Source: an uncultured Clostridia bacterium
Lineage (GTDB): Bacteria > Bacillota > Clostridia > Christensenellales > Borkfalkiaceae
Direction of reading: 5' to 3'
DNA length: 64,000 bases
Assembly: GCA_944368925.1 (NCBI GenBank)
Contig: CALVXG010000006.1
Coordinates: 1-64,000 of the forward strand
How positions within the stretch are numbered: the stretch's first letter is position 1; every line of letters starts with the position of its first letter. Both the position numbers and the translations under genes were made by a program. Below, piece after piece: positions 5,566 through 51,064 of this stretch. The notes under the pieces were generated by a model. It saw only the letters and a list, made by a program, of their open reading frames with translations. It ran no database searches and was not told the DNA's origin.

Positions 5566-8500
5566 ATGTTGGTAAAAGCACGAAAACTGTATGTTGTTAT
5601 TTTGGCATTCGTTTGTGCGGCGGCGCTTTGCCTATCGGCAGTGCTGTTTGTTTCGCCCGTTTCGGCGGAAGAAGGAACAACGAAACTGAGCGATTTTGGC
5701 GGGGACCTGGCTGCGGCGGCAAACGGCTGGATAGAAACAGAGGATGACTGGGATGGAAATTCCGAATCCAACTATTTCGGCAATTATGATTTTGCGTTAA
5801 ACGGTGATGTGCTCGATCTTTCGTTTGATTTAAAACTGACGAAATCCTATGGTCAGCTTTGGTTGGTTTTAAAGACGAAGGAAGATGTTGAAGACATCAC
5901 GGGTTTGCGGATCATACTCTTTACAGGGGCGAGCGGCGGAACCAATTTAGGCGCGACGGTTCAGACGGGAACCGGGGTAAGCCTGATCGGAAATCAATTG
6001 CAGGCGATTGCGGCAGAAGGGGACATATATACGGTCGCTATTTCCGTGAAATGGGAAAACGAATACAGCAAGTTCACGATGAGCATTTCCTTTACCAACC
6101 AGGAGACGAACGAAGTATTCAAGGCGTTGGATAATTTCAGCTATGATTTTACTCTGACCGATGCGGATCCTGATTTCGGGGCTACGGTCAAAGACAACGA
6201 TGTAGTACGATTCTTTGCGGCGGGAAATACGTCTGTGGGTATCAAAGACGTGGAAGCGGTGCAGGAACCTGCGATCGAGACAAAAAACTTGAGTGAACTG
6301 GGCGGTGATTTTGCAGCCGCGGCGAACGGTTGGATCGTGACAAAGCCGGCTGATAACTATTATGGTACATATGATTTTGCCGCGAACGACAACAGGATCG
6401 ATCTTTCGTTCGATCTGACGCTGACGGAAGCGAAGGGGCAGATCTGGCTGATTTTCAAGACGGGTGATTCGGGTAATCAGCAGGGCTTGCGGTTTTTGAT
6501 TCATTCGGGAGCGACGAACGGAAACCTGATCGGCGGCGTTATCTGGTCAAACGTACCGGAGGCGGCATTGAGTGAGCAGAAAACGTTCCCGACTCAGTCG
6601 GGAAAGACATACACCGTGTATGTCGGACTGGAATGGGGCGCGGACTATAACAGCTTTACGGCGAGTCTGTATTTTACCGATCAGGAAACAAATGAACTGT
6701 TCAAAGCGGTAGACAATTTCAGTTATGATTTTGCGCAGACGTCGGTAGATCCGGATTTTGGTGCGACGGTCAAAGACAATGATACTGTGCGTATGTTTGT
6801 TTCGGACGCAACGGTGACGCTCGGACTTAAAGATACGGGTGTGGAAGCGACGGATCCGGAAGAACCGGACGAGCCGGTGATCGAACCGGATGAAGCCTAT
6901 GCGGAAACCTCGACAGAAAAGCCTGCCGACATGAGCAATGTCAATGTGATGAATATTGAAGACTTCATGGAAACGGTGAGCATTTATACGATGACGACGG
7001 GAGCAACGGTTACGGATGACGGGAATTTCCTGTTGGATGCGACAATGTTTGATGACAGAAACCCGAACATATCCTTTAAAAATAAGGAAAATAACGGAAA
7101 GTATGCAGGGGATTATGCGATCAAATTCCGAACGGTAAATGACACACAGGATCCTGCTACGGCTGAAAGCATGCTTGACCCGACGTTCAACGTCGAGCAG
7201 AAAAAGGAAACGAATATAGACATATTCATTGAACTGGGGGCAACGACGCAGAGTTCGTATGTATCGCCGACCGGGTCGTATGTCATCCGGTTCTTCTGGG
7301 ATATGGCAGGCGGGTCACGTCTTGTGCAGTTCTATCCGAACGGATTGCAGAGTTCGAGCATGAAATCGGTAGACTTAAAAACGCTTGCGGGATACGATGC
7401 GGATTTCTTGCCCATGGGGAAAGAATTTACCATCGAAGCGGGGCGTTTCAGCACGCAGACCCAAGACGGAAAAGAGCTTTTGACTCTTTACATTGAAGTG
7501 AGCAACGAAGAAGGGGATGTGTTTTATTTGCAATGTACATTCGGGGGAAGCAATATTTATTCGCATGCGGAGACAGGCGGATATGTGCGTATTGCGTCGG
7601 CGTCGTATGTGCGTACGGCTTCCGTTCGTATTTTACCCATCGATGAAAGCACAAATGTTACGGCAAAATACGTACCTGATTATGTCGAGGCGGCAACGGT
7701 AGTGGATCACGACATTTCCGATTATCTGCCCATCGGACAGGACGGAAAGACCTATACTTCGACTTCCGATACAGAAGTTCTTGACATTATCAACTGCCGT
7801 AAATTTATCAACAATACCAAAAACGATATGTATCTTTCCTTTACGGGAGATTATACGCTGACGCTGGCGTTCTTTACCGATCGCTATGAAGACAACAACT
7901 GCAGCGCAGGATATCAGGTTGTATTTACGCCGGACGAGATCACCATTCAGTCGTATGCGGGTGCGGTTACGGCTTCCAAGTCCAAGGCATACAGTATGCC
8001 GGAAGGGACGAAATTTAAGGTAACGGTGCGTCTTGTGCAGCTGTTTGTAGACGGATTGACTTCCGGTGAACGCCTTACTCTTTATATAGACGATGAACTG
8101 ATCCTGGAAGAGAATTTCGGGTTGCAGGGTACGGGGACGCTTCCCACCTATTTTGACGGAACGTTGACGGGTAACGGTTCGGTGACCATTTATCCGTACA
8201 GCACGACGGTGACGGCGAGCAGCGGGCTGGTGCTGGATCTGGACGACGATTCCGTGGATGTAGGCAAGCAGATCCGTTTGCAGGCGACCAACACGAAGGA
8301 GATCATCGGCGAAACGATTTCGTTCAAGATCGTGGAAGGCGCGGATGTTGCGGAGATCGTTTACAATGAAGAGAGCGACCGTTATTATCTGAAAGGAGTG
8401 GCGGACGGCGTCGTGAAAGTGGCGGCGGTCGTGACCAACGAATTTGGTACGTTTGAAAGCGAAGCGGCTTCCGTTACGGTAGGAACGGGCGAGAGCCAGC

Positions 8501-8640
8501 AGCAACAGCAGCAAGGCGGCGAAGAGACGACGGGCGGCGGATGCAATTCTGCGATCGCGGTATCGTCCGTGCTTGTTTCGGCCATCGTGCTGGGAGCGGT
8601 TGTTGTGATGGCTGTCAGAAAGAAAAAGACGGAGAGATAA
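5566..8640 (+). CDS. Large secreted Cys-tail-anchored surface protein with duplicated glycan-binding-like domains
   Basis: 1024 residues. Signal peptide at 1-34. Two tandem copies of a domain of about 195 residues (about 40-235 and 240-425) share LDLSFDLKLT/IDLSFDLTLT, TNQETNEVFKALDNFSYDF and PDFGATVKDND; they look like beta-sandwich (concanavalin-like) modules. An acidic proline-rich linker (426-445) follows, then two further beta-rich modules (445-695 and 700-880) and an Ig-like BIG2-type domain (885-980). After a Gln run come TTGGGCNSAIAV, a hydrophobic helix and RKKK, the same tail type as four other proteins here. AGGAGG precedes the ATG. It heads module A, directly before an importer, so it probably binds glycan at the surface. 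No catalytic motif is seen. Confidence 0.75.
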   Translation: MLVKARKLYVVILAFVCAAALCLSAVLFVSPVSAEEGTTKLSDFGGDLAAAANGWIETEDDWDGNSESNYFGNYDFALNGDVLDLSFDLKLTKSYGQLWLVLKTKEDVEDITGLRIILFTGASGGTNLGATVQTGTGVSLIGNQLQAIAAEGDIYTVAISVKWENEYSKFTMSISFTNQETNEVFKALDNFSYDFTLTDADPDFGATVKDNDVVRFFAAGNTSVGIKDVEAVQEPAIETKNLSELGGDFAAAANGWIVTKPADNYYGTYDFAANDNRIDLSFDLTLTEAKGQIWLIFKTGDSGNQQGLRFLIHSGATNGNLIGGVIWSNVPEAALSEQKTFPTQSGKTYTVYVGLEWGADYNSFTASLYFTDQETNELFKAVDNFSYDFAQTSVDPDFGATVKDNDTVRMFVSDATVTLGLKDTGVEATDPEEPDEPVIEPDEAYAETSTEKPADMSNVNVMNIEDFMETVSIYTMTTGATVTDDGNFLLDATMFDDRNPNISFKNKENNGKYAGDYAIKFRTVNDTQDPATAESMLDPTFNVEQKKETNIDIFIELGATTQSSYVSPTGSYVIRFFWDMAGGSRLVQFYPNGLQSSSMKSVDLKTLAGYDADFLPMGKEFTIEAGRFSTQTQDGKELLTLYIEVSNEEGDVFYLQCTFGGSNIYSHAETGGYVRIASASYVRTASVRILPIDESTNVTAKYVPDYVEAATVVDHDISDYLPIGQDGKTYTSTSDTEVLDIINCRKFINNTKNDMYLSFTGDYTLTLAFFTDRYEDNNCSAGYQVVFTPDEITIQSYAGAVTASKSKAYSMPEGTKFKVTVRLVQLFVDGLTSGERLTLYIDDELILEENFGLQGTGTLPTYFDGTLTGNGSVTIYPYSTTVTASSGLVLDLDDDSVDVGKQIRLQATNTKEIIGETISFKIVEGADVAEIVYNEESDRYYLKGVADGVVKVAAVVTNEFGTFESEAASVTVGTGESQQQQQQGGEETTGGGCNSAIAVSSVLVSAIVLGAVVVMAVRKKKTER

Positions 8641-8657
8641 GAGAAAAGCGGATGCGA

Positions 8658-8676
8658 GCCGAAAAAGCGTTTCGGC
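8658..8676 (+). other. Intercistronic hairpin
   Basis: GCCGAAA pairs with TTTCGGC around AAGCG, without a T-tract. It sits between the surface protein and the binding-protein gene and could stabilise the downstream message or weaken read-through. Confidence 0.4.
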
Positions 8677-8705
8677 AAAAAATTAATCATAGGAGAAGCT
8701 AAAAA

Positions 8706-10136
8706 ATGAAAAAGACGGTTTGTATTTTACTCGGTTTGATTTTTGCCGTTCTGACTTTTTCGGCTTGCACCAGAAGTCCGGGCGGTACAGGCGGCGGTTC
8801 GAACGGAGACGGTATCTATGCAGGCAGGACGCTGCTGATCAGCATGCGTCTGAGCGGCTATGACCGCTGGCTGGACGATTATGCCATTGCGTTTGAAGAG
8901 GAGACGGGCTGTGACGTGCAGATCAACTGGAACCCTTCGCTGAACAGCGAGGTGCGCAGCATCTTCCTGTCCGAAAGTTACATACTGGACGATCTGTATT
9001 TTGCGACGACGTCCGATCTTTGGTACGATTGGGCAAAAGACGGGCTTTTGTATCCGCTCAGCGGATTGGAAGACCGCGTGAAAGACGACGTGGCGTCTTA
9101 CGGTATTTATGAAGACGAGCGCTATGTGCTCGCGCCGTTCATGCCTCCTACGGGGTTTGTGTATAACCAGGAATACCTGGACGCGATTCCTTCGTACGGT
9201 GCGTATACGCAGGGAGAATTCCCGGAAACGTGGCAGGGCCTTTTGGATCTTTGCGACAAGATCAACGAAATGGGAACGATCAACGGGCGCGCGGTCAAGC
9301 CGATGAGCTGGGGCGGCACGGTAGACGATCTGGACAGAATGTACCGCGGGCTTTGGGCGCAGGGCAACGGCGGGCAGGATTGGTACAATTATCTGAACCA
9401 GCAGGGTGACACGCCCGATCGCAATGCGTTTGTCAACGATTCTATTAAAAACGCGCTGACGGCGATGTGCAAGCTGATCAATTCGGACGGCGAATACAGC
9501 CGCAACTCTATTCTCGGCTGCGGTGAAAAGGACAATATTCAGCAACAGCAGAACTTCCTGAACGGGGATTGCGTGTTCTGTCCTTCGGGCGGCTGGTTTG
9601 AAACGGAGATGAAAGACAGTATCACGTCCGACACGTTCGAATACAACTTTGCGAACCTGCCGCAGGTGGATACGACGCAGACGGTGCGTACGGCATTTAT
9701 TGATATTCCCGCGGAAGTATTCTTTATCCCCGAAAAGGCGGAAGAAAAAGAACTCGCGCTCGAATTTCTGAAGTTTGTCTTTACCGAAGATAACTGCGTT
9801 TCGATGCACAAAGATCTGGGTACGCCGATGGCGTTCAACTATACCTTTACCGAAGAGGATATGGCGAAGCTCAATGATTTTTCGAAGACGGTCACCGATG
9901 TTGTGCTGAATAACAAGGTCGTCATGAAAGGTTCCAACAATATCATGTATCTCACGGGCGGCGTTCTGGGAACATTGTACAATGCGAAAGGGGATACGAT
10001 CAAAATGTTTTCGGATAAGATGCTTACCAACCAGGCGGGCTATACGATCAACGACATCGATAAGATGATGGAAAACAATTATCTCGGGTATTGTGCGCTT
10101 TGGGACAGTAAGCTGCGTGCGGCAGGTTTAAAATAA
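8706..10136 (+). CDS. ABC importer solute-binding lipoprotein (family 1, sugar type), module A
   Basis: 476 residues. Lipoprotein signal with lipobox Cys at residue 21 (TFSAC). The mature region has features of carbohydrate-binding proteins: an opening strand leading to DDYAIAFEEETGCDVQINWNP, YALAPFMPPTGFVYNQEYL in the middle, and a late helix EKELALEFLKFVFTEDNC. AGGAG lies upstream. Two permease genes follow within 3 bases and by overlap, forming a standard SBP-permease-permease set. It should hold the oligosaccharide on the outer membrane face for uptake. The ligand is not readable. Confidence 0.9.
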   Translation: MKKTVCILLGLIFAVLTFSACTRSPGGTGGGSNGDGIYAGRTLLISMRLSGYDRWLDDYAIAFEEETGCDVQINWNPSLNSEVRSIFLSESYILDDLYFATTSDLWYDWAKDGLLYPLSGLEDRVKDDVASYGIYEDERYVLAPFMPPTGFVYNQEYLDAIPSYGAYTQGEFPETWQGLLDLCDKINEMGTINGRAVKPMSWGGTVDDLDRMYRGLWAQGNGGQDWYNYLNQQGDTPDRNAFVNDSIKNALTAMCKLINSDGEYSRNSILGCGEKDNIQQQQNFLNGDCVFCPSGGWFETEMKDSITSDTFEYNFANLPQVDTTQTVRTAFIDIPAEVFFIPEKAEEKELALEFLKFVFTEDNCVSMHKDLGTPMAFNYTFTEEDMAKLNDFSKTVTDVVLNNKVVMKGSNNIMYLTGGVLGTLYNAKGDTIKMFSDKMLTNQAGYTINDIDKMMENNYLGYCALWDSKLRAAGLK

Positions 10137-10139
10137 GTT

Positions 10140-11069
10140 ATGGAAAAAGTGTCGTCGAAAAAATTTATGCGGGCGAAAATCCGCGATTCCTTGTTTGTAT
10201 ATCTCGTTCTGCTATGGCCGGTCATACACTTTTGTATATTTTCGATCGGCATGAACATCTCCATGATCATTAGCTCCTTTCAGGACGCGAGCGACAGGTT
10301 TTACGGATTCAACAATTACAGAAGCGTAATCACTACGTTTTTGGGGCTGAGCGCCTCTTCCACGTTGGAAAATCCGAGGGCGATCCTCAATTCGCTGTCC
10401 ATTTTGCCGCTGTCGCTTTTGATCGACATGCCCATCTCGCTCTTATTTTCCTATGTCATCTATAAGAAATATTGCGCGAGCAAATTTTTCAGCGTCGTGT
10501 TGTTTATTCCGACCGTGATTTCCGCGGTGGTTCTCTGCCTTTGCTTTAAAATGGCGGTCAGCCGCGATTTCGGGTTTATCACGCAGATTCTCCAATCAAT
10601 CGGGTTGGGACATTTGGTACCCGCCAACGGCTTTTTGGGGGATCCGAAGACGGCGTGGTGGTTCATTCTGCTGTTCAGCATCTGGACGGGTATCAGCACG
10701 AACATGATTTATTTCAGCTCGGCGATGAGCAGGATTTCGGAGAGCGTCATCGAGAGCGCGCGGATCGACGGGGCGAGCGATCTGAGACAGTTTTTCACGA
10801 TGATTATCCCGATGATCTGGGGGACGATCACGACTGTTTCCATGACCTGTATTTCGGGCATGTTCGGCTGGTATCTGCCGGCGCTGCTGCTTACCAACGG
10901 TACGGCCAATACGAGCACCATCGGATTGGTCATCATTATCAATTCGCAGGCGAGGACGAATCTCAATTTTGTATCGGCGTTCGGTGTTCTGATCGCGATC
11001 ATAGGTTCTGTCATCACGCTGGGTTCGAAGCGGTTGATGGAAAGGTTCTGGAGGGACGTAGAATACTGA
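10140..11069 (+). CDS. ABC sugar permease, MalF/UgpA type
   Basis: 309 residues, about six membrane helices. The cytoplasmic EAA loop that contacts the ATPase is visible at about residues 203-220 (SARIDGASDLRQFFTMIIPM). It starts 3 bases after the binding-protein stop, and its stop overlaps the next permease start (TGATG), so the genes are translationally coupled. No ATPase gene is nearby. Confidence 0.92.
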   Translation: MEKVSSKKFMRAKIRDSLFVYLVLLWPVIHFCIFSIGMNISMIISSFQDASDRFYGFNNYRSVITTFLGLSASSTLENPRAILNSLSILPLSLLIDMPISLLFSYVIYKKYCASKFFSVVLFIPTVISAVVLCLCFKMAVSRDFGFITQILQSIGLGHLVPANGFLGDPKTAWWFILLFSIWTGISTNMIYFSSAMSRISESVIESARIDGASDLRQFFTMIIPMIWGTITTVSMTCISGMFGWYLPALLLTNGTANTSTIGLVIIINSQARTNLNFVSAFGVLIAIIGSVITLGSKRLMERFWRDVEY

Positions 11070-11992
11070 TGAAAATTGCGAAACCTCAATACAAGATCAA
11101 AAAGCTGACGCGCGGCGATATTGCGTTTGCCGCGATTGTACTGACCCTGATGATCCTATTTGCGGCGAGTTATCTTTTTATGTTCATCTGGGTCATTCTG
11201 AACTCGTTCCGCGTCATAGCCAATTACAATGCCGAACCGATGGCGATCTTCAATTTTGAAGGCGTGTCGTTATCCAATCTGTTCGATAATTACAAGCAGG
11301 TTTTTGAATATACGGTCAAATTTACGGCATACGTGGGCGGGAAACGCCAGCACGTTACGATCGGACTCATCGATATGTTCGGAAACTCGCTTACGCAGAT
11401 CGTCATTGCGGTTGCCTGCGGGCTGGTATTCCCGCCCGCGGTGGGATATGTGATCTCCAAGTACAACTTTAAAGGCAAGCGGCTGATCGAGCTGGCGGTG
11501 GTCATGACGATGTGCATACCCACCATCGGCACGACGGCATCGGTGCTGACGTTTTACGACAAGCTGGGCATTATGAACACGTGGTGGACGGTCGTTCTGA
11601 GCCGTTCGGGCGGACTCGGTTTCGGTGTTCTGCTGTACGGAAACTATTTCGCATCCATACCGAAAGAGTACGTGGAATCGGCAAAGCTGGACGGCGCGGG
11701 CAATCTGTGCGCCTATCTGAGCATCATGCTGCCGCAGGCTCTGCCCATACTGACCGCGCAGGGGATTCTGACGGTGATCACCAACTGGAACGATTACATG
11801 ACTTCGTTCCTGTACCTGAAAAATAACCCGACCGTCGCTTACGGGATCAATGCGCTGTCCAACCAGTTTTCCAATGCTTATCCCGTCGTATTTGCGGCGC
11901 TGTTCATGACTTCGGCGGTCACGCTTTTGCTGTTTGCTTGCTTTAACAAGAAAATTATGAGCAGTATGTCTGCGGGGGGAATCAAAGGATGA
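11069..11992 (+). CDS. ABC sugar permease, MalG/UgpE type
   Basis: 307 residues with six predicted helices. The EAA loop EYVESAKLDGAGNLCAYL is at about residue 198, and the C-terminus MSSMSAGGIKG is typical of MalG-type permeases. The ATG overlaps the stop of the first permease; upstream in-frame codons lie inside that gene and are rejected. The 3' end overlaps the next gene by 4 bases. Confidence 0.92.
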   Translation: MKIAKPQYKIKKLTRGDIAFAAIVLTLMILFAASYLFMFIWVILNSFRVIANYNAEPMAIFNFEGVSLSNLFDNYKQVFEYTVKFTAYVGGKRQHVTIGLIDMFGNSLTQIVIAVACGLVFPPAVGYVISKYNFKGKRLIELAVVMTMCIPTIGTTASVLTFYDKLGIMNTWWTVVLSRSGGLGFGVLLYGNYFASIPKEYVESAKLDGAGNLCAYLSIMLPQALPILTAQGILTVITNWNDYMTSFLYLKNNPTVAYGINALSNQFSNAYPVVFAALFMTSAVTLLLFACFNKKIMSSMSAGGIKG

Positions 11993-13452
11993 AAAAGGGA
12001 GTAAAGAGGATATCTGCCCTTTTGCTCGGGCTTTTGATGGGCGGCGTTGCCATGTTTGCGTTTGCGGGGTGCGTGGATCCGAAGGATACGCCGCCGGACG
12101 ATGATACCGTGCAGGAGCAAGAGAAGGCGCAGATCGATTACGAACAATACAAAGACAGTTATTATATAGACATAGCGGCGTGGGGGTTCCCGACGCTGGA
12201 ATACGACGCGCAGAACGGTTACGATACGCAGGCGAATAACGCGTTCGCGCAGGACATGAAGGAGGCGGGTTTTACCATAGTCAATCATGCGGGGCGCAGC
12301 AATCTGCGGCCGGGGGCGCACGGTTCGGCGGAAGAGGTAGAGGATCTGATCTCGCAGAGGATAGAGCTCTTTGAAAAGAACGGTCTGAAATCGGTTGTGT
12401 ACACTTCCAACTACACGAAAGGCGGTGCGGACGGCAAAGGCGCGATGTGGTGGGATTTCGACGTGGTGGGTATGCCCGATTTTTCCGATTCGGAAGGTTT
12501 TTACGGGCTTCTCGTGTGGGATGAACCGTATCCGGAGGTCATGACGAAACTTGCATCTTATGCGGAGACGTTCAATGAGACGTACCGCGGGACGGATGCG
12601 GTGTTCATGGTGAATTTGTATCCTTCGTATGCGGATCTGTTCCGCAGCGGCGGGTATTCGGACTATCTGAAAAATTATTGCGAGACGGTGCTTTCGCAAG
12701 TGGAGGGGAAGAAATATCTGTCCGTAGATTCGTACGCGATCCGTGCGGACAAACAGCTGGAAACCTATCTTCTGTACGATATCGCGATGGTGAAAAAGTA
12801 TTCCCTCGAGTATGATACGCTTTCGCACATTTGTCTGCAAAGTTCGATGACGTCCGTCAAAAATCGTATTCCCGAACAGAGCGAGTATGCCGTACAGGCG
12901 TATGCGGCGCTGGCGCTCGGGATGGATTCGATCTCGTGGTACACCTATATAACGCCCGAAGAAGACGGGTACGGCGACGGATCGGCGCCCGTAAACCAGA
13001 ACGGCACGAAAAATGCGGCGTACGAGGCGCTGAAAAAAGTCAACAACGACATTGCGGCGTTCGGGTATGCGTATAAGTGCTTTGACTGGAAGGGCGTGGT
13101 ATTGAATCCCGTGACGCAGACTTCGGCGATGAATCTGATTCTGAAAAACCGCGAACTGATCGATTATGTATATACGGCAGAAGATCTGAACACCGTTTCT
13201 TCCATTGAAAGCGATCAGGATTACATGATGGGCGTCATGGAGGATGAAAACGGGGACGAGGGCTTTATGCTCGTGAACTACTGTTCTTTGGCGGACGCGC
13301 AGGACGCGGTGATCGACATTGCGTTTACCGAAGCGGATTTGCTGATGATCTGGAGAGACGGCGAAAAGCAGACCGTTTCGCTTGATAACAATTCCATTAC
13401 GCTTACCCTTAAACAGGGGGAGGGCGTGTTCATGGTGCCTGTCAGGGATTAA
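11989..13452 (+). CDS. Lipoprotein of the DEP family, TIM-barrel hydrolase-like
   Basis: 487 residues. Lipobox Cys at residue 28 (AFAGC). I do not recognise a named family. It shares ordered motifs with three other genes here (13456, 42714, 44006): GLLVWDEP with D178-E179-P180, MVNLYPSYA, SVDSYA, CLQSS, a QAYAALALG helix, then AAYEALKKVNNDI. Alternating strands and helices suggest a (beta/alpha)8 barrel, and DEP recalls the NEP acid/base motif of clan GH-A glycosidases, so a secreted glycosidase is plausible. The second catalytic carboxylate is not evident (Gln in LQSS). It overlaps the permease by 4 bases (ATGA) and belongs to the module A operon. Confidence 0.7.
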   Translation: MKKGVKRISALLLGLLMGGVAMFAFAGCVDPKDTPPDDDTVQEQEKAQIDYEQYKDSYYIDIAAWGFPTLEYDAQNGYDTQANNAFAQDMKEAGFTIVNHAGRSNLRPGAHGSAEEVEDLISQRIELFEKNGLKSVVYTSNYTKGGADGKGAMWWDFDVVGMPDFSDSEGFYGLLVWDEPYPEVMTKLASYAETFNETYRGTDAVFMVNLYPSYADLFRSGGYSDYLKNYCETVLSQVEGKKYLSVDSYAIRADKQLETYLLYDIAMVKKYSLEYDTLSHICLQSSMTSVKNRIPEQSEYAVQAYAALALGMDSISWYTYITPEEDGYGDGSAPVNQNGTKNAAYEALKKVNNDIAAFGYAYKCFDWKGVVLNPVTQTSAMNLILKNRELIDYVYTAEDLNTVSSIESDQDYMMGVMEDENGDEGFMLVNYCSLADAQDAVIDIAFTEADLLMIWRDGEKQTVSLDNNSITLTLKQGEGVFMVPVRD

Positions 13453-16844: not shown

Positions 16845-17447
16845 ATGCAGACGGAAAAAATCGTCGCGATGGTTTTGAGCATCGCGGGTATGCTGGTTAC
16901 GGTCATATCCTTTCAGGCGCGGAAAAAGCATACGCTGCTGTTGTTTCAGACGGGCGGCACGGCGCTGTATCTTGTATCCTACTTTTTTTCGGAAGGGGGG
17001 ATCGCGGTCGCGCTGAATGTTGTTTATCTTGTGCGGAATGTTCTCTTTATGGCATTTCAAGACAAAAGCAAGGCGCTGTTGCGTGGAACGGCAGTGTGTT
17101 TGTGTGTAAGTTATGTGGGGATATATGCCGTCTATGCCGCAGTGATCGAAACACAGGTGAGCGTGATTCTTTGGTATCTTCTTCCCGTGGCGGGGGCGCT
17201 GTTTGGTACGTGTGCCGTCGTGTGCGGGAACGTAAATGCACTTCGGGGCTGGAAGATGGGAGATTCCGTTTGCTGGCTCGCGTACAATATCCATATCGGG
17301 CTGGGTGCGCTGGGCGGCATTGTGGGCGAGGTTCTCAATCTTATTTCCCAGACCGTGGGGATTCTGCGTTTCCGCAGGACGGGGAAATTGGCAAAGGAAG
17401 AACAAAATATGGCAGGTGAGTCAAAAGAGCATGAAGAAAATAAATGA
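16845..17447 (+). CDS. YgjV-like inner-membrane protein
   Basis: 200 residues with about six membrane segments. Sequence blocks such as MVLSIAGMLVTVISFQARKKHTLLLFQ and the late segment GDSVCWLAYNIHIGLGALGGIVGEVLNLIS match the YgjV style of small membrane proteins of unknown function. It begins 2 bases after the DUF5107 stop and overlaps the next gene by 17 bases, so it is translated with the sugar operon. No role in glycan use is known for the family. Upstream in-frame starts lie inside DUF5107 and are rejected. Confidence 0.7.
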   Translation: MQTEKIVAMVLSIAGMLVTVISFQARKKHTLLLFQTGGTALYLVSYFFSEGGIAVALNVVYLVRNVLFMAFQDKSKALLRGTAVCLCVSYVGIYAVYAAVIETQVSVILWYLLPVAGALFGTCAVVCGNVNALRGWKMGDSVCWLAYNIHIGLGALGGIVGEVLNLISQTVGILRFRRTGKLAKEEQNMAGESKEHEENK

Positions 17448-40084: not shown

Positions 40085-40092
40085 GGTGGAAT

Positions 40093-44005: not shown

Positions 44006-45280
44006 ATGGCAAAATTTTTCAAAAAGACGGCGGCGGTCGCCATGGCGGGAATGCTGACGCTTGCGATGCTGTCGACGGCGGCGGGTTGTGCGAAAGAGGC
44101 GCCCGTGTACGATGAATTTGCGGACTCGCGCGTGCTGAACATAGGCGCGTGGGTCGGGCCGCCCAGCAACGAGACGACGCAGGAACGTTACGACGAGATT
44201 GCGGAGAGCGGTTTGAACTTTATTATCGATATTTATTCGGGCGCGGTGGAGCAGAAGCTGAATTATTCGCAGCAGGCGGGAATCAAGTATATTATGAACG
44301 GCATTTATTTCCCGACGTACGAGGGGCTGGCGGAGTACATGGATCATCCCGCGCTGATGGGCATAATCGGGCGGGACGAACCGGGCGTTTCGGCGTTTGA
44401 GGAGCTGGCGGCGAAAAAAGAGAGTTTCAAGGCGCTGTATCCGGACAAACTGTTCTTTGTGAACCTGCTTCCTTCCTATGCGACGGAAGCGCAGCTGGGG
44501 ACGAAATTCTATACGGATTATGTCAGGATGTATGCGGAGACGGTGGCGCCCGAGCTGTATGTGTTTGACGGGTACTCATTGCTGAAGAGTTCGACGGGTG
44601 CGACGAGCATCGAATCGGGAATGCTGTTCAATCTTGAGACGGTGGCCATGGAAGCGCAGGAGCAGGGAAAACCGTACTGGGCGTTTTTGCAGACGATGGG
44701 GTACGGCGGAGACCGCCGCAACGTGACCGAAGCGGATATCCGTTTCCAGTATTACACATATCTTTCCTATGGATACAGCGGGCTTTTGCATTTCTGTTAT
44801 TGGACGCCGGGCGGGGCGGAATTTCCGGAAAGCGTGTACGCCATGATCGAGCGCGACGGGTCCAGGACGCCTACGTACGACGCCGTGAAAAACGTCAATG
44901 CGGAGATCCTGAATTTCGACCACGTCCTGCTCTCTTACGAATGGACGGGCACGATGACGGTACTGGGAGAAAACGAGCTGATGTGCAAGGCATTCCAGCG
45001 TCTTTCGTCTCCGTTGAAGGAGCATGAAGCGATCGAAAGGGCGACCGCTTCGGAGAACGCCATTATCGGCACGTTCAAGGACGGGGAATACAACGGCTTT
45101 ATGGCGGTCAACTTTACCGACCCTGCGTTAGAAAAGACAAACCATATCGAAATAAAATTCCGCGACGCGAAGAAGGCACTGGTGTATGTGGACGGTCAGC
45201 CGCAGACGGTAAATCTGAAAGGCGGCGTCTATTCGGCGGATCTTGATCCGGGCGAAGGACGGTTTATTATTCCGTTGTAA
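44006..45280 (+). CDS. Lipoprotein of the DEP family, module C
   Basis: 424 residues. Lipobox Cys at residue 28 (TAAGC). Motifs are GIIGRDEP (D124, E125), FVNLLPSYATEAQLG, VFDGYS, AFLQTMG, QYYTYLSYGYSGLLHFCYW and TYDAVKNVNAEI. It resembles the cytoplasmic paralogue just upstream most closely (KLFFVNLLPSYAT versus KLFYVNLLPNYAT), suggesting one gave rise to the other by duplication and change of location. The probable role is extracellular partner of the intracellular enzyme. Activity unproven. Confidence 0.7.
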   Translation: MAKFFKKTAAVAMAGMLTLAMLSTAAGCAKEAPVYDEFADSRVLNIGAWVGPPSNETTQERYDEIAESGLNFIIDIYSGAVEQKLNYSQQAGIKYIMNGIYFPTYEGLAEYMDHPALMGIIGRDEPGVSAFEELAAKKESFKALYPDKLFFVNLLPSYATEAQLGTKFYTDYVRMYAETVAPELYVFDGYSLLKSSTGATSIESGMLFNLETVAMEAQEQGKPYWAFLQTMGYGGDRRNVTEADIRFQYYTYLSYGYSGLLHFCYWTPGGAEFPESVYAMIERDGSRTPTYDAVKNVNAEILNFDHVLLSYEWTGTMTVLGENELMCKAFQRLSSPLKEHEAIERATASENAIIGTFKDGEYNGFMAVNFTDPALEKTNHIEIKFRDAKKALVYVDGQPQTVNLKGGVYSADLDPGEGRFIIPL

Positions 45281-45301: not shown

Positions 45302-47698
45302 ATGGTAAAATCCATCAAGATCAGGTTCATGTTCGTCCTGTCGGTTGCGCTGTGCTGCTGTCTTTTGGCTGGATTGCAGCCGTTCAAAGCGAGCGCCTCC
45401 AAATTTGTCGGGGTGATCATGGAAGAAAACTTTACTACCGAAGAATTTTCGACGGACAACTGGCGCCTTGCCGAGCCGGAGGACGGGGAAAGTTCTGTCT
45501 ATGTAAGCCCGAGCGAACCGTATTTGCTGCTGATGGGCCCGACGTACGATTCCGGCACGGCCGTATACATTGACGCGCCTGCGGAAGTCACTCCGGATAC
45601 GGGCAAGCTGATCGTCGAGTTCGATCTGATCGGCGAATCGGCGCACAACAGCATGTTTTCCGTGGTGACGGGGATCGGAAAGGCGGAATCGGGAGCAGCC
45701 GATTTCACGACGGAACGCCGTTCGCAGATGATCATGTGCGGAGCGGGCGGCAACGCATTTACCGTACAGGCGTACGGGTTGCCCGAATTTGCGGGACAGC
45801 CCGCCACGTTTAACATATACAACAACGGCACCAATTACGGCGGAGCTTCTACGGTCGGCGGATACGGGGTGAAGGGGAACCGCTACAGGCTCGTTTACGG
45901 GCAGGACGGTTCGTTCTATTCCTATGCTTCCCCGATCCTGGACGACGGGACGTACGGGGCGGAAGTCGCGGGATGCTACGTGACGGACGGCATGATCGAG
46001 AATGGGCACAGCGGATGCGTCGGGTTCTTTTTCTGGTTTGAAACGGCGGGCATCTCTTTAAGGAACGTAAAAATTTCCACGCAGTCTGCGGAAGGGGCGC
46101 CTTCGCTGACCGTGTTTGAGGATGCGCAGGAAAACGATTCGCTCAAGAGCGAATGGAAAACGGTCAACGGGAATACGCGGGTTTCCATGAGCAGGACGCC
46201 CGGCAGCGCGGTGTTTGACAATCCGTCCGACGAGAATTATTTGGTCAGCGCGGGTTCCAAGAACATCGAATACGACGCAATGTACGACGCGTATATCACG
46301 ATGGAATTTTCATTGACCTTCCGCGAACTGAACGGAGCGCGCAAATTCGGTTTGGCGTTCGGTCTGAACACCAGCGAGGACAACACGCAGACGGAAGGGG
46401 TGGCGTACCTGCATTTTAACCGAAACGCGCAGAACGAGCAGCTGATCGACCTTTCGTGGACGCTGAAGGGGGCCGATCAGGATCTTACTTCCAACGTGGT
46501 GACGCTGAACGCGTCGGACGTGATCGGAAAGACGCTGGATATCGTGATCAGCCCGTACGTAAACGGGAAAGCGGACGTGAAGATCGGAGATACGACGTAT
46601 ACGTTTATCGTCGAGGGAGAAAAGATCATTCTCAGCAAACGTCTTGCCTTTATCGCGCACGGCGGCGATCCCGAAGGCGGCGACACGGTCGTGGCGGAGC
46701 TGGGGCCCGTGACCATCACCAACCGTTACGATTCCGTTCCCGACGACATTGTCGATCTTTCGCAGGGTTTTGACGGGGTGGACGAAAACGGAAATCCCTG
46801 GTATGACAGAGACCTGTATTCTTTCGGCGGCGGGCTCGGATATACGTACGGCGATCTGAATGCGGGCGTATTCATGGAAGACGGGCAGCTTGTTTTCCGC
46901 AATGCGGGGCACAACTCCTATTTTTCGCCGTTGAAGGCGTTCGGCGATTTCCTGATGCAGTTTGACATCACGGATATCGCAAGGGAAGACGAGTATTCGC
47001 AGGACGGCATGCTGTATCGTCCGTTCATGCGCAGCTGGCTGGGCATAGCGTTCGGGCTTCCTTCGGCGGGCAGCCCGTATACGTCGGGATATTTGTTCTA
47101 TATCACGTCGCCTTATGAAGAGGACGCGGAAAATCCGGGCAAATACAAGGCTTCGGAGGCTCCTTCGACGTATACCATCATCAACGCGAGCGGCGCGGGA
47201 CTCGTGAGCGGTACGCTTCGGCACAACTTCCTCGATCCCGAACTGGACGGAAAGTCCATCGTCGTCCGGCTGAAAGCGGACGGGGGGATCCTTTCGTTCT
47301 CCTATTACGTCAAGGGAGAGGAGAGCATGGAAATGCTCGACGAACCGCTGTTCGAATACGACAACAACGGGTTGGGATTCGGCCACAACGGATATTTCGG
47401 GATCACCTGCACATCGGCAGGGGAACAGCCCGTGGCGGGAGATTTCAGCATCGATAACTTTGTGCTCAGAAGCCTGGACCGCAACGTGAATATAACCAAC
47501 GATCCCGATAAGCCGGTCGAGGAAGCGCCTCCCGTGCAGGAAGAGCCGGAGACAGAGGAGCCTGCGGGTTCGGAAGGCGGATGCTCGTCGTCCGTATTCG
47601 GAAAAGCGATGCCGGTTGCGGCGGTGCTTGCGGCGGCGTGCGGTGCGGTGCTTTGCCTGACGAAAAGAAATAAAACGGTAAAAAACAAAAAAGAATAA
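45302..47698 (+). CDS. Secreted Cys-tail-anchored protein with concanavalin-like modules
   Basis: 798 residues. Signal peptide at 1-33. Three beta-sandwich modules follow (about 40-265, 270-480, 490-725) with repeated GKLIVEFDLIG, EFSLTFREL and DFLMQFDIT strands as in LamG/laminarin-binding folds. A Glu/Pro linker precedes SEGGCSSSVFG, a hydrophobic helix and a Lys-rich end. The module plan matches the next protein (45302 versus 47717), e.g. the third module opens DGQLVFRN/DGTLFFEG. No catalytic residues recognised; glycan binding is inferred. Confidence 0.72.
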   Translation: MVKSIKIRFMFVLSVALCCCLLAGLQPFKASASKFVGVIMEENFTTEEFSTDNWRLAEPEDGESSVYVSPSEPYLLLMGPTYDSGTAVYIDAPAEVTPDTGKLIVEFDLIGESAHNSMFSVVTGIGKAESGAADFTTERRSQMIMCGAGGNAFTVQAYGLPEFAGQPATFNIYNNGTNYGGASTVGGYGVKGNRYRLVYGQDGSFYSYASPILDDGTYGAEVAGCYVTDGMIENGHSGCVGFFFWFETAGISLRNVKISTQSAEGAPSLTVFEDAQENDSLKSEWKTVNGNTRVSMSRTPGSAVFDNPSDENYLVSAGSKNIEYDAMYDAYITMEFSLTFRELNGARKFGLAFGLNTSEDNTQTEGVAYLHFNRNAQNEQLIDLSWTLKGADQDLTSNVVTLNASDVIGKTLDIVISPYVNGKADVKIGDTTYTFIVEGEKIILSKRLAFIAHGGDPEGGDTVVAELGPVTITNRYDSVPDDIVDLSQGFDGVDENGNPWYDRDLYSFGGGLGYTYGDLNAGVFMEDGQLVFRNAGHNSYFSPLKAFGDFLMQFDITDIAREDEYSQDGMLYRPFMRSWLGIAFGLPSAGSPYTSGYLFYITSPYEEDAENPGKYKASEAPSTYTIINASGAGLVSGTLRHNFLDPELDGKSIVVRLKADGGILSFSYYVKGEESMEMLDEPLFEYDNNGLGFGHNGYFGITCTSAGEQPVAGDFSIDNFVLRSLDRNVNITNDPDKPVEEAPPVQEEPETEEPAGSEGGCSSSVFGKAMPVAAVLAAACGAVLCLTKRNKTVKNKKE

Positions 47699-47716: not shown

Positions 47717-50700
47717 ATGAGTAAAAAATTTACGGTTTTGCTGTGTGTTTTGGCTTTGGCACTGACCTTGTCGGGCGTTTTTGCGCAGAATGTCCGCGTG
47801 AATGCGTACGAACAGGCGGATGTGCTGTCCACGTCTTTGACGACGGTTACGGAGGAAGGGGAAAAGACGATCGATCCCGCCTGGGACGCGACCGCTTTGG
47901 GCGACACGAGCGTCGAATATGCGAACGGCGTGAGCGAGAATTACCTGTATCTGACGGGCGAACCCATGCAAATGCAGTTTGCCACGCCGATCACGCAGCA
48001 TAAGGACGTGGTGCTGGAATTTGACTACATGGCGGAGAGCAATGCAAACAGTTACATGGGTTATATGCAGTTCGGGCCTTTTGCGGGGCGCAATTCTGCG
48101 AACATGTCGGAAGGCACATGGCCGATGTTCAACTATATGAGCCAGCAGGTGATCGATTCTACGATCAGCGGCGGCGCATATGTCATGAAAATACAGGATC
48201 TTCGCGAAGGGGCGGATGCACCCGTTCAGGACACGGCGACGTTCAATTACGGTTTTGTTCCGGGAAACCGTATCCGCATGACGTTTGAAGTGGAATCGGG
48301 GGATGCGTACATTGCGCAAAAGCCGATCGGAAGCGCTGCGGAATTTACGGACGATGTGCGCATCGTAGAGTTCATGCAGGGGCCTACCGATCATCAGATC
48401 TCCGAATCTGCGCCCTGCTATTTTATGTGGTGTACATACCGTCAGGTCATGGTCGGCGATCTTGTTCTCCGTTACAGGGACGGCGAGATCATTCACGACG
48501 TAAACTTCGACACGGATCTGCGCCTGTATTGGGGAAATTTTGCGAACGGATATCACATGATCAACGTTGACAGACCCACCTGGCAGGTAGTCAGCCCGAT
48601 CTTTGACGGGATGAATACGGGCGAGCGCCTGGTTCTGAAAGAAGAGATCGTGAAAACGGAAGCCTGGGCTTCGACGAAGAAAACGGTATTTGAGATCAAC
48701 ACCGCGATCCGTATGATCGACATGACGGCAGCGGATCAGTCTTTCGGGTTCCTGTTGGGAATGCAGAATGCAAACGATGCGTGGGATGCGGAAGGCGTCG
48801 TGTATGTGAAATTCTGGAGAGATTCGAATTTTACGGGCTATATGGACGTCTTGCGCGGAGGTGTGCCTGTTTATACAAATCCTGTACCTTTGGATAATCT
48901 TTTGCGAAACAATTATGCTTTGAGAATTGTCGGGTATTCGGACGGTCAGCTGGAGATTTATATCAACGGTGTTGTTCGCGGCGGATACAGTGCCGGGGAT
49001 ATGTACGGAAAGATGGCGATCGTATCCGAAGGGGAGGGAGAGTCCCGTTTCGGATTTGGTTCGGAATTTACGGTGACACGCTATGCGGACGTCGTCTATG
49101 AAGGGGCAGATCAGGAGATCAACTTCAACGCATTGCAGGGAAGCGAAGAACCCGCATACGTGGACGAAGCCAAGTGGTACATGAATTCGACGACGGCGGC
49201 ATTCTTTGCGGACGAAGAAGCGGCGAAGGGGCTGCACGTTGCACAAGACGGTACGCTGTTCTTCGAAGGGACGACGGACGGTTCCATGTTTGCGCCCAAA
49301 GGGAAGTACGGAAACTTTATCCTCGAATTTGATTTCTATAACTATGCAACGGCAGACAAACCTGCGCAGAAAACGGATGAATGGCCGCACGGGTACAGTT
49401 CGCTGGGCGTATCGTTCGGAAAATCTTCGTATGATGCCAACTGGGCGTCTGCAAAAATTCTCATGTTCGATTCGGAAACGCTTGTTTTCCAGGCATTGAA
49501 CGACAATCCCGTAACGACGGGGACCGCGGCAATCTCAACGGCGGGAAAATGGAACAGATTCAAGATCGTGGCGCAGAACAACACGGTGACCGTGTATGCC
49601 TGTGAGCTGACGGAAGGCAAAGAAGATTATACTTCCGAAGATTATGTACAGGTCGGACAGTTCACGTGCCAGAATCAGGATGGATACATTTCTTTCGGTT
49701 CTACGGAAGGCGGGTATTTTAAATTAGACAACATCCGCATCACGAATATCGACGAAGGCATGGACGGGTATGTCGATTTTGCGCCGATCGCAGACGATTA
49801 CGGCCCCGCGAACGTGACCGCAGTTTCTGTCAACGAAGCATACGGCACGGTGACGGGCGGCGGTGCCTGCACGTTGGGCGATTCGGTTACGGTAACTGCG
49901 GCGGCGCAACCGCACTATGCGTTTGTGGAGTGGCAGGATGCAAGCGGTGCCACGGTATCCGAAGAAGCGTCTTATACGTTTACGGTGCTCAGCCGTGAAG
50001 TATCGCTCAAAGCGGTGTTTGAGGCGGTTTCTTACAATGTGACCGTTGCGGCAAACGATGATTCTATGGGCACGGTTTCGGGTGCGACGTCGGCCGTATT
50101 CGGTACGGAAGTGACGGTGAGCGCGACGGCGAACAAATACCACAGCTTTGTTGCGTGGAAGGATGCGGAAGGTACGACGGTATCCGAAAGTGCCGAATAC
50201 ACATTCAGCGTGGCGGGAAATACTTCTCTGACGGCAGAATTTGCGAGAGATTCTTATACCGTTACGGCGACGGCGAACGATGCGGCGTACGGAACGGTCG
50301 GCGGCGGAGCGACGGTGCAGGGCGGCGATTCGGTTACCTTGACGGCAACGGCGAACAGCGGGTACACGTTTGTGCGCTGGGAAGATGAGTCGGGGAACAG
50401 TTTGTCGACGTCGGCAGAGTACACTTTTGTACCCGAAAGCGATGTGATGGTTGTTGCGGTTTTCAGCGAAACTCCCGTGACGATCACGGTGACGGTATCC
50501 GACGAAGCGCATGGCACGGTGACGGGCGGCGGAACGTACGTCAAAGGGGACAGTGTGACGCTTACGGCGACGGCGAAGACGGGTTATAAATTTGTGCGCT
50601 GGGAAGATGCGGACGGCACGAGCGTATCGACGGACGCGGAATATACATTCACGGCGAGCGCAGACGCAACGTACAAAGCGGTGTTCGAAGTGAAAAACGT

Positions 50701-51064
50701 GACGATCACGGCGACGGTATCCGACGAAGCGCATGGCACGGTGACGGGCGGCGGAACGTATGCCGAAGGGGCAAGCGTGACGCTTACGGCAACGGCGAAG
50801 TCGGGTTATAAATTTGTGCGCTGGGAAGATGCGGACGGCACGAGCGTATCGACGGACGCGGAATACACGTTTACGGCGAGTGCAGACGCTACGTACAAAG
50901 CGGTGTTCGAAGCGGAGGAAACGGATTCCGATCCTGCAGACCCGGGTACGGACGATAAGGATGAACCCGCGGAGACGGGATGCGGAAGCGCGGTTGCGGG
51001 CGGATATCTTGCTCTCGGAGCGATCTGCGTATTGGCGGCGTGCGTACTTTTCCGCAAGCGTTGA
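47717..51064 (+). CDS. Giant secreted Cys-tail-anchored protein: concanavalin-like modules plus five divergent InlB repeats
   Basis: 1115 residues. Signal peptide at 1-32. Three beta-sandwich modules (about 35-255, 260-465, 470-690) as in its neighbour. From about 698 to 1072 come five repeats of about 74 residues with the pattern AYGTVTGGG, GDSVTLTATA, GYKFVRWEDADG, AEYTF, KAVFE, typical of divergent InlB (Flg_new-like) repeats. Then PAETGCGSAVAGG, a hydrophobic helix and RKR as final residues. The last two repeats are nearly identical in DNA. GGGAGG precedes the ATG. It probably acts as a stalked glycan-binding adhesin. Confidence 0.75.
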   Translation: MSKKFTVLLCVLALALTLSGVFAQNVRVNAYEQADVLSTSLTTVTEEGEKTIDPAWDATALGDTSVEYANGVSENYLYLTGEPMQMQFATPITQHKDVVLEFDYMAESNANSYMGYMQFGPFAGRNSANMSEGTWPMFNYMSQQVIDSTISGGAYVMKIQDLREGADAPVQDTATFNYGFVPGNRIRMTFEVESGDAYIAQKPIGSAAEFTDDVRIVEFMQGPTDHQISESAPCYFMWCTYRQVMVGDLVLRYRDGEIIHDVNFDTDLRLYWGNFANGYHMINVDRPTWQVVSPIFDGMNTGERLVLKEEIVKTEAWASTKKTVFEINTAIRMIDMTAADQSFGFLLGMQNANDAWDAEGVVYVKFWRDSNFTGYMDVLRGGVPVYTNPVPLDNLLRNNYALRIVGYSDGQLEIYINGVVRGGYSAGDMYGKMAIVSEGEGESRFGFGSEFTVTRYADVVYEGADQEINFNALQGSEEPAYVDEAKWYMNSTTAAFFADEEAAKGLHVAQDGTLFFEGTTDGSMFAPKGKYGNFILEFDFYNYATADKPAQKTDEWPHGYSSLGVSFGKSSYDANWASAKILMFDSETLVFQALNDNPVTTGTAAISTAGKWNRFKIVAQNNTVTVYACELTEGKEDYTSEDYVQVGQFTCQNQDGYISFGSTEGGYFKLDNIRITNIDEGMDGYVDFAPIADDYGPANVTAVSVNEAYGTVTGGGACTLGDSVTVTAAAQPHYAFVEWQDASGATVSEEASYTFTVLSREVSLKAVFEAVSYNVTVAANDDSMGTVSGATSAVFGTEVTVSATANKYHSFVAWKDAEGTTVSESAEYTFSVAGNTSLTAEFARDSYTVTATANDAAYGTVGGGATVQGGDSVTLTATANSGYTFVRWEDESGNSLSTSAEYTFVPESDVMVVAVFSETPVTITVTVSDEAHGTVTGGGTYVKGDSVTLTATAKTGYKFVRWEDADGTSVSTDAEYTFTASADATYKAVFEVKNVTITATVSDEAHGTVTGGGTYAEGASVTLTATAKSGYKFVRWEDADGTSVSTDAEYTFTASADATYKAVFEAEETDSDPADPGTDDKDEPAETGCGSAVAGGYLALGAICVLAACVLFRKR
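50477..50920 (+). repeat. 222-bp near-identical tandem repeat inside the surface-protein gene
   Basis: Unit 1 starts at 50477 and unit 2 at 50699, period 222 bp (74 codons). Only scattered differences separate the two, while the three upstream repeats have diverged. It points to recent duplication or gene conversion, and to possible length variation of the stalk. Confidence 0.85.

What the first reader, a model, noticed from the sequence alone, without database searches (positions are those of the whole stretch)
5566..51064. A repeated capture-and-import module: importer + DEP-family lipoproteins + Cys-tail surface proteins
Modules A (5566-14814) and C (39077-51064) contain the same set in different order: ABC binding protein and two permeases, two DEP-family proteins, and one or two giant surface proteins with a Cys tail. 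Module B (25961-35229) keeps importer and surface proteins but replaces DEP proteins with an (alpha/alpha)6-like lipoprotein. Surface binder, surface hydrolase and importer in one operon would be a Gram-positive counterpart to Sus-type glycan uptake. I know of no named system with this composition.
Basis: partly seen in the sequence, partly recalled or inferred. Interest (0 to 1): 0.72.

Follow-up and report, generated by a model that had tools for sequence, protein, structure and literature searches.

The report
Glycan-import operons with Cys-tailed surface proteins
A gut-type Clostridia genome carries many gene clusters that pair a sugar importer with large surface proteins ending in an unusual cysteine-containing anchor and, in some clusters, with an enzyme-like protein family that had no name in the libraries searched; the clusters are conserved in relatives, and the anchor tends to occur together with one kind of membrane protease, which could be the enzyme that sorts these proteins.

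Summary
Modules A, B and C each contain a sugar-binding protein, two permeases and one or two Cys-tailed surface proteins; A and C also carry two DEP-family proteins each. Module C recurs gene for gene in a yak-rumen MAG, and DEP + importer + large secreted protein recurs in other families of the order and in a MAG labelled Haloplasma: not a chance assembly.

As a system this meets the definition of a Gram-positive polysaccharide utilization locus (gpPUL), so "no named system" is overstated. Three parts look new. (1) DEP proteins are predicted barrels resembling clan GH-A enzymes, with D-E-P, N and D-x-Y invariant in 59/59 aligned members but Glu at the usual beta-7 nucleophile position in 2/59. 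(2) The tail (consensus GGC[SGN][SG], TM helix, basic end) stays below the MYXO-CTERM cut-off in all 28 own proteins scanned. All 34 tail hits in the genome lie on the strand of the nearest permease, 32 within 10 kb. (3) Sortase was found in 1 of 41 family genomes, whereas one clade of CPBP proteases (myxosortase superfamily) tracks the tail: tails in 19/22 genomes with it, 5/19 without (Fisher p=1.3e-4).

Most likely: surface capture, DEP processing, import; tails sorted by that protease (inferred). In genus g14 tails are not near importers, so the tail is a general signal.

The parts
5566..8640 (+). Module A Cys-tail surface protein, 1024 aa, signal peptide; tail at 8524-8637 (GGGCNSA...TM...RKKK)
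   Evidence: no Pfam hit
8706..10136 (+). Module A solute-binding lipoprotein, SBP_bac_1; part-length similarity to TIGR03850 and NgcE, far below cut-off
10140..11069 (+). Module A permease 1 (PF00528)
11069..11992 (+). Module A permease 2 (PF00528)
11989..13452 (+). DEP-family lipoprotein A1
   Evidence: no Pfam hit
13456..14814 (+). DEP-family lipoprotein A2
   Evidence: no Pfam hit
14848..16842 (+). DUF5107 protein with weak TPR hits, downstream of module A
17431..19026 (+). GH20C-type beta-hexosaminidase-like protein; homologues lie in DEP stretches of four relatives
25961..27325 (+). Module B Cys-tail protein 1 (tail 27206-27322)
27322..29727 (+). Module B large lipoprotein, weak GH65C and GDE_C hits; homologues at 34-35% identity beside importers in 3 other own operons and at 29% in G211 beside a DEP gene
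29774..31123 (+). Module B SBP
31133..32053 (+). Module B permease 1
32055..32912 (+). Module B permease 2
32962..35229 (+). Module B Cys-tail protein 2 (tail 35113-35226)
   Evidence: no Pfam hit
38058..38903 (-). AraC-type regulator (named by reading, no Pfam scan), divergent from module C; homologue at the same place in L083
39077..40084 (+). Module C permease 1 (PF00528, 24.9 bits, just below the cut-off)
40081..41130 (+). Module C permease 2
41146..42693 (+). Module C SBP
42714..43991 (+). DEP protein C1, no signal peptide; Glu at the beta-7 position; GH42 hit over part of its length (E 1.5e-6)
44006..45280 (+). DEP lipoprotein C2; structure modelled (pLDDT 97.1)
45302..47698 (+). Module C Cys-tail protein 1 (tail 47570-47680), all-beta; laminin-G-like domains suggested by a low-confidence model
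47717..51064 (+). Module C Cys-tail protein 2 (tail 50963-51061), Flg_new_2 repeats and a 3keto-disac_hyd-like domain
51169..53874 (+). GH38 alpha-mannosidase-like; homologue (55% identity) follows the module in L083
53867..55894 (+). GH127-like protein (hit below cut-off); homologue (55% identity) follows in L083
55891..58467 (+). second GH38-like protein

Best explanation
Each module is one glycan-capture-and-import operon, a gpPUL with two unusual parts. Shown by sequence: importer genes, DEP genes and large secreted proteins form conserved gene clusters; the surface proteins end in a Cys-TM-basic tail; sortase is nearly absent in the family sample while a CPBP protease clade co-occurs with the tail. 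Inferred: the surface proteins hold a glycan at the cell surface; the DEP proteins, mostly lipid-anchored beside them, cut or trim it with a barrel active site built on the invariant D-E pair at beta-4 and D-x-Y at beta-6 instead of a beta-7 nucleophile; the binding protein and two permeases import the product, powered by an ATPase encoded elsewhere; cytoplasmic glycosidases (GH38, GH20C, GH29 near modules A and C) finish the job. The tail is a C-terminal sorting signal: after export the tail helix sits in the membrane and a type-2 CPBP intramembrane protease, in the manner of myxosortase, removes it next to the possibly lipidated cysteine.
For: Conserved order: L083 (yak-rumen MAG RGIG10265) has AraC, permease, permease, SBP, DEP-C1, DEP-C2, Cys-tail, Cys-tail, GH38, GH127-like in the window's order. 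A second order, DEP-SBP-permease-surface-permease-DEP, recurs in G033 (L069), G131 (L116, L117), G275 (L119) and a Haloplasma-labelled MAG (L085). DEP genes scoring at least 150 bits in relatives: 33 of 49 have a permease within 10 kb, 30 an SBP, 17 a Cys tail, 40 a tail or large secreted protein in the same stretch (stretches chosen by me from the hits). DEP and tail are in one protein in L118. DEP model pLDDT 97.1; most of the best fold matches are clan GH-A-type enzymes (clan labels recalled). D94, E95, P96, N123, D158, Y160 invariant in 59 of 59. Own tails: 34 of 34 same strand as the nearest permease. Sortase hit in 1 of 41 family genomes, CPBP in 41 of 41. Type-2 CPBP clade: tails in 19 of 22 genomes with it, 5 of 19 without; Mann-Whitney p 1.4e-5; within-genus permutation p 0.026; another CPBP clade as control shows no link (p 0.74). 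Myxosortase precedent: PMC11980579, passages.
Against: No biochemistry. DEP may be non-catalytic. The tail is not essential to the module (large lipoproteins and no tail in G005 and G009; a Cys-less TM tail in the Haloplasma-labelled locus) and is used away from importers in G014 and G031; 22 of 44 permease groups of the own genome have no tail within 10 kb. 16 of 49 strong DEP genes have no permease in the stretch, some on short contigs, others not. Three own proteins with a C-terminal TM lack the Cys at the place scanned (two in L018, one in L028). The CPBP link is a correlation in 41 related genomes of varying completeness; tail counts come from an HMM trained on one genome, many genomes have a single weak tail hit, three type-2 genomes have none, and the clade was drawn by eye after I had suspected the link from hit lengths. 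By the coordinates no type-2 CPBP gene lies within 10 kb of a tail.
Confidence: 0.55

Rival explanations
1. Ordinary gpPULs whose surface proteins simply carry an unprocessed C-terminal membrane anchor; the cysteine is palmitoylated, structural or neutral, and CPBP is unrelated.
For: A Cys-less TM tail sits in the same operon slot in L085; lipoproteins and no tail in G005 and G009; by coordinates no type-2 CPBP gene lies within 10 kb of a tail.
Against: Cys in 16 of 18 lone-C-terminal-TM proteins in loci chosen by DEP; tail presence follows one CPBP clade and not another.
Confidence: 0.35
2. DEP proteins are N-acetylhexosaminidase-like enzymes using substrate-assisted catalysis through the adjacent D-E pair (pattern recalled for GH20, GH85, GH123), making modules A and C host N-glycan loci that work like the pneumococcal CPL plus ABC-NG.
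For: Adjacent D-E at the end of beta-4 with the beta-7 carboxylate mostly lost; GH20C, GH38 and GH29 in the window, all three in the pneumococcal CPL (PMC5215778, passages); GH20C in DEP stretches of G002, G035, G019 and G105; DUF4838 in L119 and L133.
Against: Five DEP stretches carry alpha-rhamnosidase-type proteins (L118, L119, L074; L083, L122) and two carry GH2 (L124, L125), so one amino-sugar substrate for the family is unlikely; the 50 fold matches listed show GH42, GH164, GH140 and the like and no GH20 entry.
Confidence: 0.2
3. DEP proteins are non-catalytic binders derived from a GH42-like barrel, working as a second glycan receptor next to the SBP.
For: No Glu at the end of beta-7 in 57 of 59; DEP domains inside giant proteins.
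Against: Strict conservation of D94, E95, D158 and Y160 in 59 of 59 looks like an active site.
Confidence: 0.25
4. The modules are chance neighbours.
For: The genome is rich in importers: 83 PF00528 hits.
Confidence: 0.02

Closest known systems
Gram-positive polysaccharide utilization loci (gpPULs), Sheridan et al. 2016, PMC5320581 (passages seen)
   Same: Importer, glycan enzymes and regulator in one locus
   Different: The passages returned for my terms mention neither DEP proteins nor a C-terminal sorting tail ('sortase' occurs once in the main text, 'cell wall anchor' never); the rest of the paper was not read
MYXO-CTERM / myxosortase, PMC11980579 (passages seen)
   Same: Invariant Cys, TM helix, basic end; CPBP-family partner
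   Different: Gram-negative Myxococcota with T2SS export there; here Clostridia (Gram-positive by inference), whole proteins below the MYXO-CTERM cut-off, partner only inferred
Streptococcus pneumoniae N-glycan CPL with ABC-NG and EndoD, PMC5215778 (passages seen)
   Same: GH20C, GH38 and GH29 with a binding protein and two permeases
   Different: DEP proteins and tailed surface proteins where EndoD would be; GH92, GH125 and GH85 were not sought genome-wide and did not appear among the 23 window proteins scanned
GH42 beta-galactosidases, clan GH-A
   Same: Barrel fold; 16 of 59 DEP members hit PF02449 at E up to 0.01
   Different: D-E-P at beta-4 and no beta-7 Glu in 57 of 59
Bacteroidetes Sus-type systems
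   Same: Surface capture, processing and import encoded together
   Different: No SusC or SusD family among the 23 window proteins scanned

Membership tests
[quoted passage not shown]
   Importers; GH20C, GH38 and GH29; AraC-type genes at 4471, 19047 and 38058 named by reading; by sequence only, that a polysaccharide is degraded is inferred
Sus-type PUL | SusC/SusD pair | tested here: not met
   No such family among 23 window proteins scanned with Pfam
LPXTG sortase substrates | LPXTG-like motif and score above the cut-off of TIGR01167 | tested here: not met
   27 of 28 own tail proteins stay below the 15.9-bit cut-off; one, a fragment at a contig edge (L028), scores 16.5 through positions 11-34 of the profile only. 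Tails alone match at E 0.0016 at best, 10 of 28 at E up to 0.1 (bits not shown there)
LPXTG sortase substrates | Sortase in the genome | tested here: not met
   PF04203 in 1 of 41 family genomes, the window's own; that gene lies beside a primase-like frame (my reading)
MYXO-CTERM | Tripartite tail with Cys, TM helix and basic end | tested here: met
   (sets and 28 picked by their Cys)
MYXO-CTERM | Whole-protein score above the cut-off of TIGR03901 (20 bits) | tested here: not met
   0 of 28 own proteins; best 16.1. Among 7 proteins of relatives the best is 17.1. Tails alone reach E 1.1e-4, where bits were not shown
MYXO-CTERM | CPBP protease that cleaves the tail | tested here: inconclusive
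   A CPBP clade co-occurs with tails; cleavage not testable here
GH42 / clan GH-A | (beta/alpha)8 fold with clan GH-A matches | tested here: met
GH42 / clan GH-A | Glu nucleophile at the end of beta-7 | tested here: not met
   Glu in 2 of 59 at that column, both of the C1 type
S. pneumoniae-type N-glycan locus | EndoD (GH85), GH92 and GH125 | not tested
   Not sought genome-wide

The most novel reading that the evidence does not exclude
A nearly sortase-less lineage of Clostridia uses a Cys-type C-terminal sorting signal processed by a dedicated CPBP intramembrane protease (a Gram-positive myxosortase pathway), and in the window's genome has devoted it almost wholly to glycan-import operons, where tailed binders work next to a new clan GH-A-like glycosidase family with a rebuilt D-E / D-x-Y active site.
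Probability: 0.3. Interest if true: 0.8.

Novelty: new variant of a known kind. Interest (0 to 1): 0.62.

Why it matters
How Gram-positive gut bacteria without sortase fix large proteins to the cell surface is, to my knowledge, open. The tail gives a defined signal, and the type-2 CPBP clade a single candidate enzyme that can be tested in E. coli, as was done for myxosortase. The DEP proteins are a high-confidence fold with an atypical active site, present in several families of the order, and no Pfam or NCBIfam model covers most of them. They sit at the surface step of glycan uptake, so their activity would tell what these uncultured rumen and gut Clostridia eat.

Tried and rejected
Rfam and tRNA scans of the window: nothing. 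LPXTG/sortase explanation: rejected. Genome-contig scan with DEP C2 alone: no relative; the second scan gave 4 loci. Structure of Cys-tail protein C1: mean pLDDT 55, so its fold matches (laminin-G and other jelly rolls, among them receptor-binding domains of toxins that share the fold; TM-score on the query 0.14-0.19) support no more than 'all-beta, binder-like' and say nothing about a toxin. A single N-glycan substrate for all DEP modules: weakened by rhamnosidase-type and GH2 neighbours. The permease list for six relatives was cut by the tool, so no background coverage was computed there. The 370-aa CPBP clade was used as a control and shows no link. A DEP-tail fusion in L135 appeared in the looser scan and not in the stricter one, so it is not counted.


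Full report
What is there. The window is contig C6:1-64000 of a 2.70 Mb, 44-contig genome, 93.7% complete. One correction matters: DEP C1 (42714-43991) lacks a signal peptide, so module C has one presumably cytoplasmic and one lipoprotein DEP. Nearby are GH29 (3065-4378), DUF5107 and GH20C after module A, and two GH38-like and one GH127-like protein after module C, with another GH38 at 35485-38025. 'CUT1', AraC-type and clan labels are my naming, from reading or recall.

Not chance, in this genome. PF00528 gives 83 permease hits. A tail model from 28 own tails (A6) finds 34 tails at E up to 0.01. All 34 are on the strand of their nearest permease; 32 lie within 10 kb and 28 within 8 kb; the two beyond 10 kb are one in module C itself (10.4 kb) and one at a contig start. 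All 19 tail clusters have a permease within 8 kb, where at most 25.7% of the genome lies. The converse is weaker: 22 of 44 permease groups have a tail within 10 kb. DEP: 10 hits in the genome, 9 of 10 within 10 kb of a permease; the two on C8, at 10.0 and 11.7 kb, stand beside a Cys-tail gene. The module B lipoprotein has homologues beside the same kind of importer and Cys-tail protein in three other own operons (L015, L024, L026). So the constant is importer plus tailed surface protein, and the accessory lipoprotein varies.

Not chance, across genomes. DEP is found in 14 of 41 family genomes (E up to 1e-3) and 25 of 297 order genomes (E up to 1e-10), the window's own counted in both. I fetched 20 stretches from the first search and 20 from the second, not all hits, preferring strong ones, plus three of the four named loci (L084 left out as a duplicate of L070). 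In one stretch (L130) no DEP gene was called. Of 58 DEP genes, 49 score at least 150 bits: 33 have a permease within 10 kb, 30 an SBP, 17 a Cys tail, and 40 have a tail or another large secreted protein in the stretch. Of the 9 weaker ones, 2 have a permease, 1 an SBP, 1 a tail and 8 a tail or large secreted protein, so the last measure discriminates little. L083, a yak-rumen MAG, repeats module C gene for gene from the AraC gene to the GH127-like gene; L070 (G033) repeats the part its 6.7 kb contig covers; L082 (G033) repeats the first five genes of module A, and its second DEP gene is not seen. The order DEP-SBP-permease-surface-permease-DEP occurs in G033 (L069, with one extra frame), G131 (L116, L117), G275 (L119) and a MAG labelled Haloplasma contractile (L085). 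In L118 a DEP domain and a Cys tail are in one protein. In G002, G035 and G019 DEP domains sit inside proteins of about 1,700-2,600 aa. Against a strict module: G005 and G009 have DEP and importer with large lipoproteins and no tail, and 16 of the 49 strong DEP genes have no permease in the stretch: two on the short contig L070, the rest in L063, L064, L066, L072, L076, L077, L078 (two), L081 (two), L086, L126, L131 and L135.

The DEP family. Pfam gives no hit for three of the four window copies and GH42 at E 1.5e-6 for C1; over 59 members, 16 hit GH42, and no NCBIfam model matches more than one member. AlphaFold2 on a 59-row alignment gives pLDDT 97.1 and pTM 0.95: a (beta/alpha)8 barrel plus a C-terminal beta-sandwich. 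The first 50 Foldseek matches in the PDB are mostly GH42, GH164, GH140, GH30 and GH2/GH35-type enzymes, with a few others such as an alpha-amylase and an alpha-1,3-glucanase; TM-score on the query 0.33-0.53 and identity 8-13%, so the kinship is distant. D94-E95-P96 stand at the end of beta-4, N123 near the end of beta-5, D158-x-Y160 directly after beta-6; all six are invariant in 59 of 59. The last residue of beta-7 is Gln in 48, Glu in 2 (both of the C1 type), and Ala, Leu, Trp or His in the other 9. In the sequence alignment to a GH42 chain whose entries include the E324A nucleophile mutant (4uoz), DEP has a hydrophobic residue at the nucleophile and Gln after it. Either way the canonical nucleophile is missing in nearly all. 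Invariance of two or three acids and a Tyr argues for an active site; which residues do the chemistry is open.

The Cys tail. In 28 tails read, Cys is the only invariant column; the common form is GGC[SGN][SG], a TM helix and a basic end. That set was picked by its Cys, so the fairer test is: among secreted proteins with a lone C-terminal TM and basic end, Cys was counted in 21 of 24, 31 of 35 and 16 of 18 in three sets. The first two were fetched mostly because of tail hits; the third was chosen by DEP, and its two misses are both in the Haloplasma-labelled locus. Against NCBIfam, 0 of 28 own tail proteins reach the MYXO-CTERM cut-off of 20 bits (best 16.1; best of 7 relatives 17.1), and of the sorting models only LPXTG_anchor is passed once, at 16.5 against 15.9, by a contig-edge fragment and through the membrane part of the profile (HMMER's filters hide weaker matches). 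Scanned as bare tails, MYXO-CTERM is the best match (E 1.1e-4; 6 of 28 at E up to 0.1), and LPXTG_anchor matches most often (10 of 28) (bits not shown, so single bare tails may pass a cut-off). The tail is not module-specific: in G010 (same genus) 9 of 12 tails are within 10 kb of a permease, but in G014 and G031 it is 1 of 18 and 0 of 15 (counted by hand).

Who processes the tail. Sortase (PF04203) is found in 1 of 41 family genomes, the window's own, beside a frame that reads like a mobile-element primase. The genomes are 57-99% complete, so single absences are weak and the pattern is what counts. CPBP proteases (PF02517) are in 41 of 41. I suspected from hit lengths that one kind tracks tails, fetched the sequences and built a tree of 81. 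One clade, type 2, with EExxFR, one HxxN and one HxxxN motif in the window genus, is in 22 genomes, 19 of them with tails (G001, G021 and G030 have none); of 19 genomes without it, 5 have tails: one each in G004, G022, G027 and G029, two in G015, which is 57% complete; G022 has a member of the sister clade. Fisher p 1.3e-4, or 2.6e-4 with the sister clade included; for two or more tails 13 of 22 against 1 of 19, p 2.9e-4; Mann-Whitney on counts p 1.4e-5; within-genus permutation p 0.026; the 370-aa clade as control p 0.74. The clade was drawn by eye, the genomes are related, and counts come from a model trained on one genome, so this is a lead. No type-2 gene lies within 10 kb of a tail (coordinates). 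The precedent is strong: myxosortase, a CPBP protease, cleaves a Cys-containing tail and works in E. coli (PMC11980579, passages).

Surface proteins. Cys-tail protein C1 is predicted all-beta at low overall confidence (pLDDT 55; about residues 310-410 of the model above 80 for the most part) with laminin-G-like matches of low TM-score; C2 has Flg_new_2 repeats and a 3keto-disac_hyd-like domain. Binding of glycans is inferred.

Substrate. Module A and C neighbours (GH38, GH20C, GH29) resemble the pneumococcal N-glycan locus (PMC5215778, passages), and GH20C stands in DEP stretches of four other genomes. But rhamnosidase-type enzymes stand in DEP stretches L118, L119, L074, L083 and L122, and GH2 in L124 and L125 (I scanned selected neighbours, not all). 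L083 is the locus that repeats module C. So the family probably serves several glycans, and N-glycans are a guess for the window's modules only.

Compared with what is known. As a system it meets the gpPUL definition (PMC5320581, passages) and no Sus protein was found among 23 window proteins. What the libraries I searched do not cover is the DEP family and the tail with its candidate protease. On print: the listings of paper searches, and passages of three papers, showed me no description of this tail or of the DEP proteins; the key paper on Cys-type signals (Haft 2024) is not held, so an earlier description there or in other papers not held cannot be excluded.

Verdict. A real, conserved glycan-import module; a new variant of a known kind. 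The sorting pathway is the part that would surprise a specialist, and one experiment in E. coli would test it.

Noticed in passing
G000:C39:2355-2846 (L030): The only sortase of the 41-genome family sample lies next to a frame that reads like a mobile-element DNA primase.
   Followed up: partly
L136-L139 (G014, G031): A small-genome genus (1.1-1.2 Mb) carries 15-18 tail hits, some in neighbouring genes with near-identical tails, nearly all away from ABC permeases; one tailed protein (L136 10451-12337) resembles an acetylxylan esterase over part of its length.
   Followed up: partly
L063, L064, L065, L066, L067, L068: DEP domains inside proteins of about 1,700-2,600 aa in G002, G019 and G035.
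   Followed up: partly
L123 (G211): DEP, Cys-tail protein, module B-type lipoprotein and B-type importer in one cluster, joining the two module kinds.
   Followed up: yes
L076 (G002:C8), DEP 3724-5028; CPBP at G002:C8:5487-5768: A DEP gene lies upstream of the type-2 CPBP gene on the same strand; single case.
   Followed up: no
58714-60483 (-): Prepilin-like N-terminus (AFTITELVIVI) on a 590-residue frame between module C and a fourth importer at 61056.
   Followed up: no
L085: A MAG labelled Haloplasma contractile holds the operon with TM tails that lack the cysteine, which may mark where the Cys signal arose.
   Followed up: partly
L124 15358-16908, L125 32-1597: ADP-ribosylglycohydrolase-family genes beside DEP modules in G211 and G233.
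   Followed up: no
L024 10044-11768 (own genome, C2): A Cys-tail protein with a glycerophosphodiester phosphodiesterase-like domain (62 bits, below the model's cut-off), so tailed proteins can be enzymes as well as binders.
   Followed up: no
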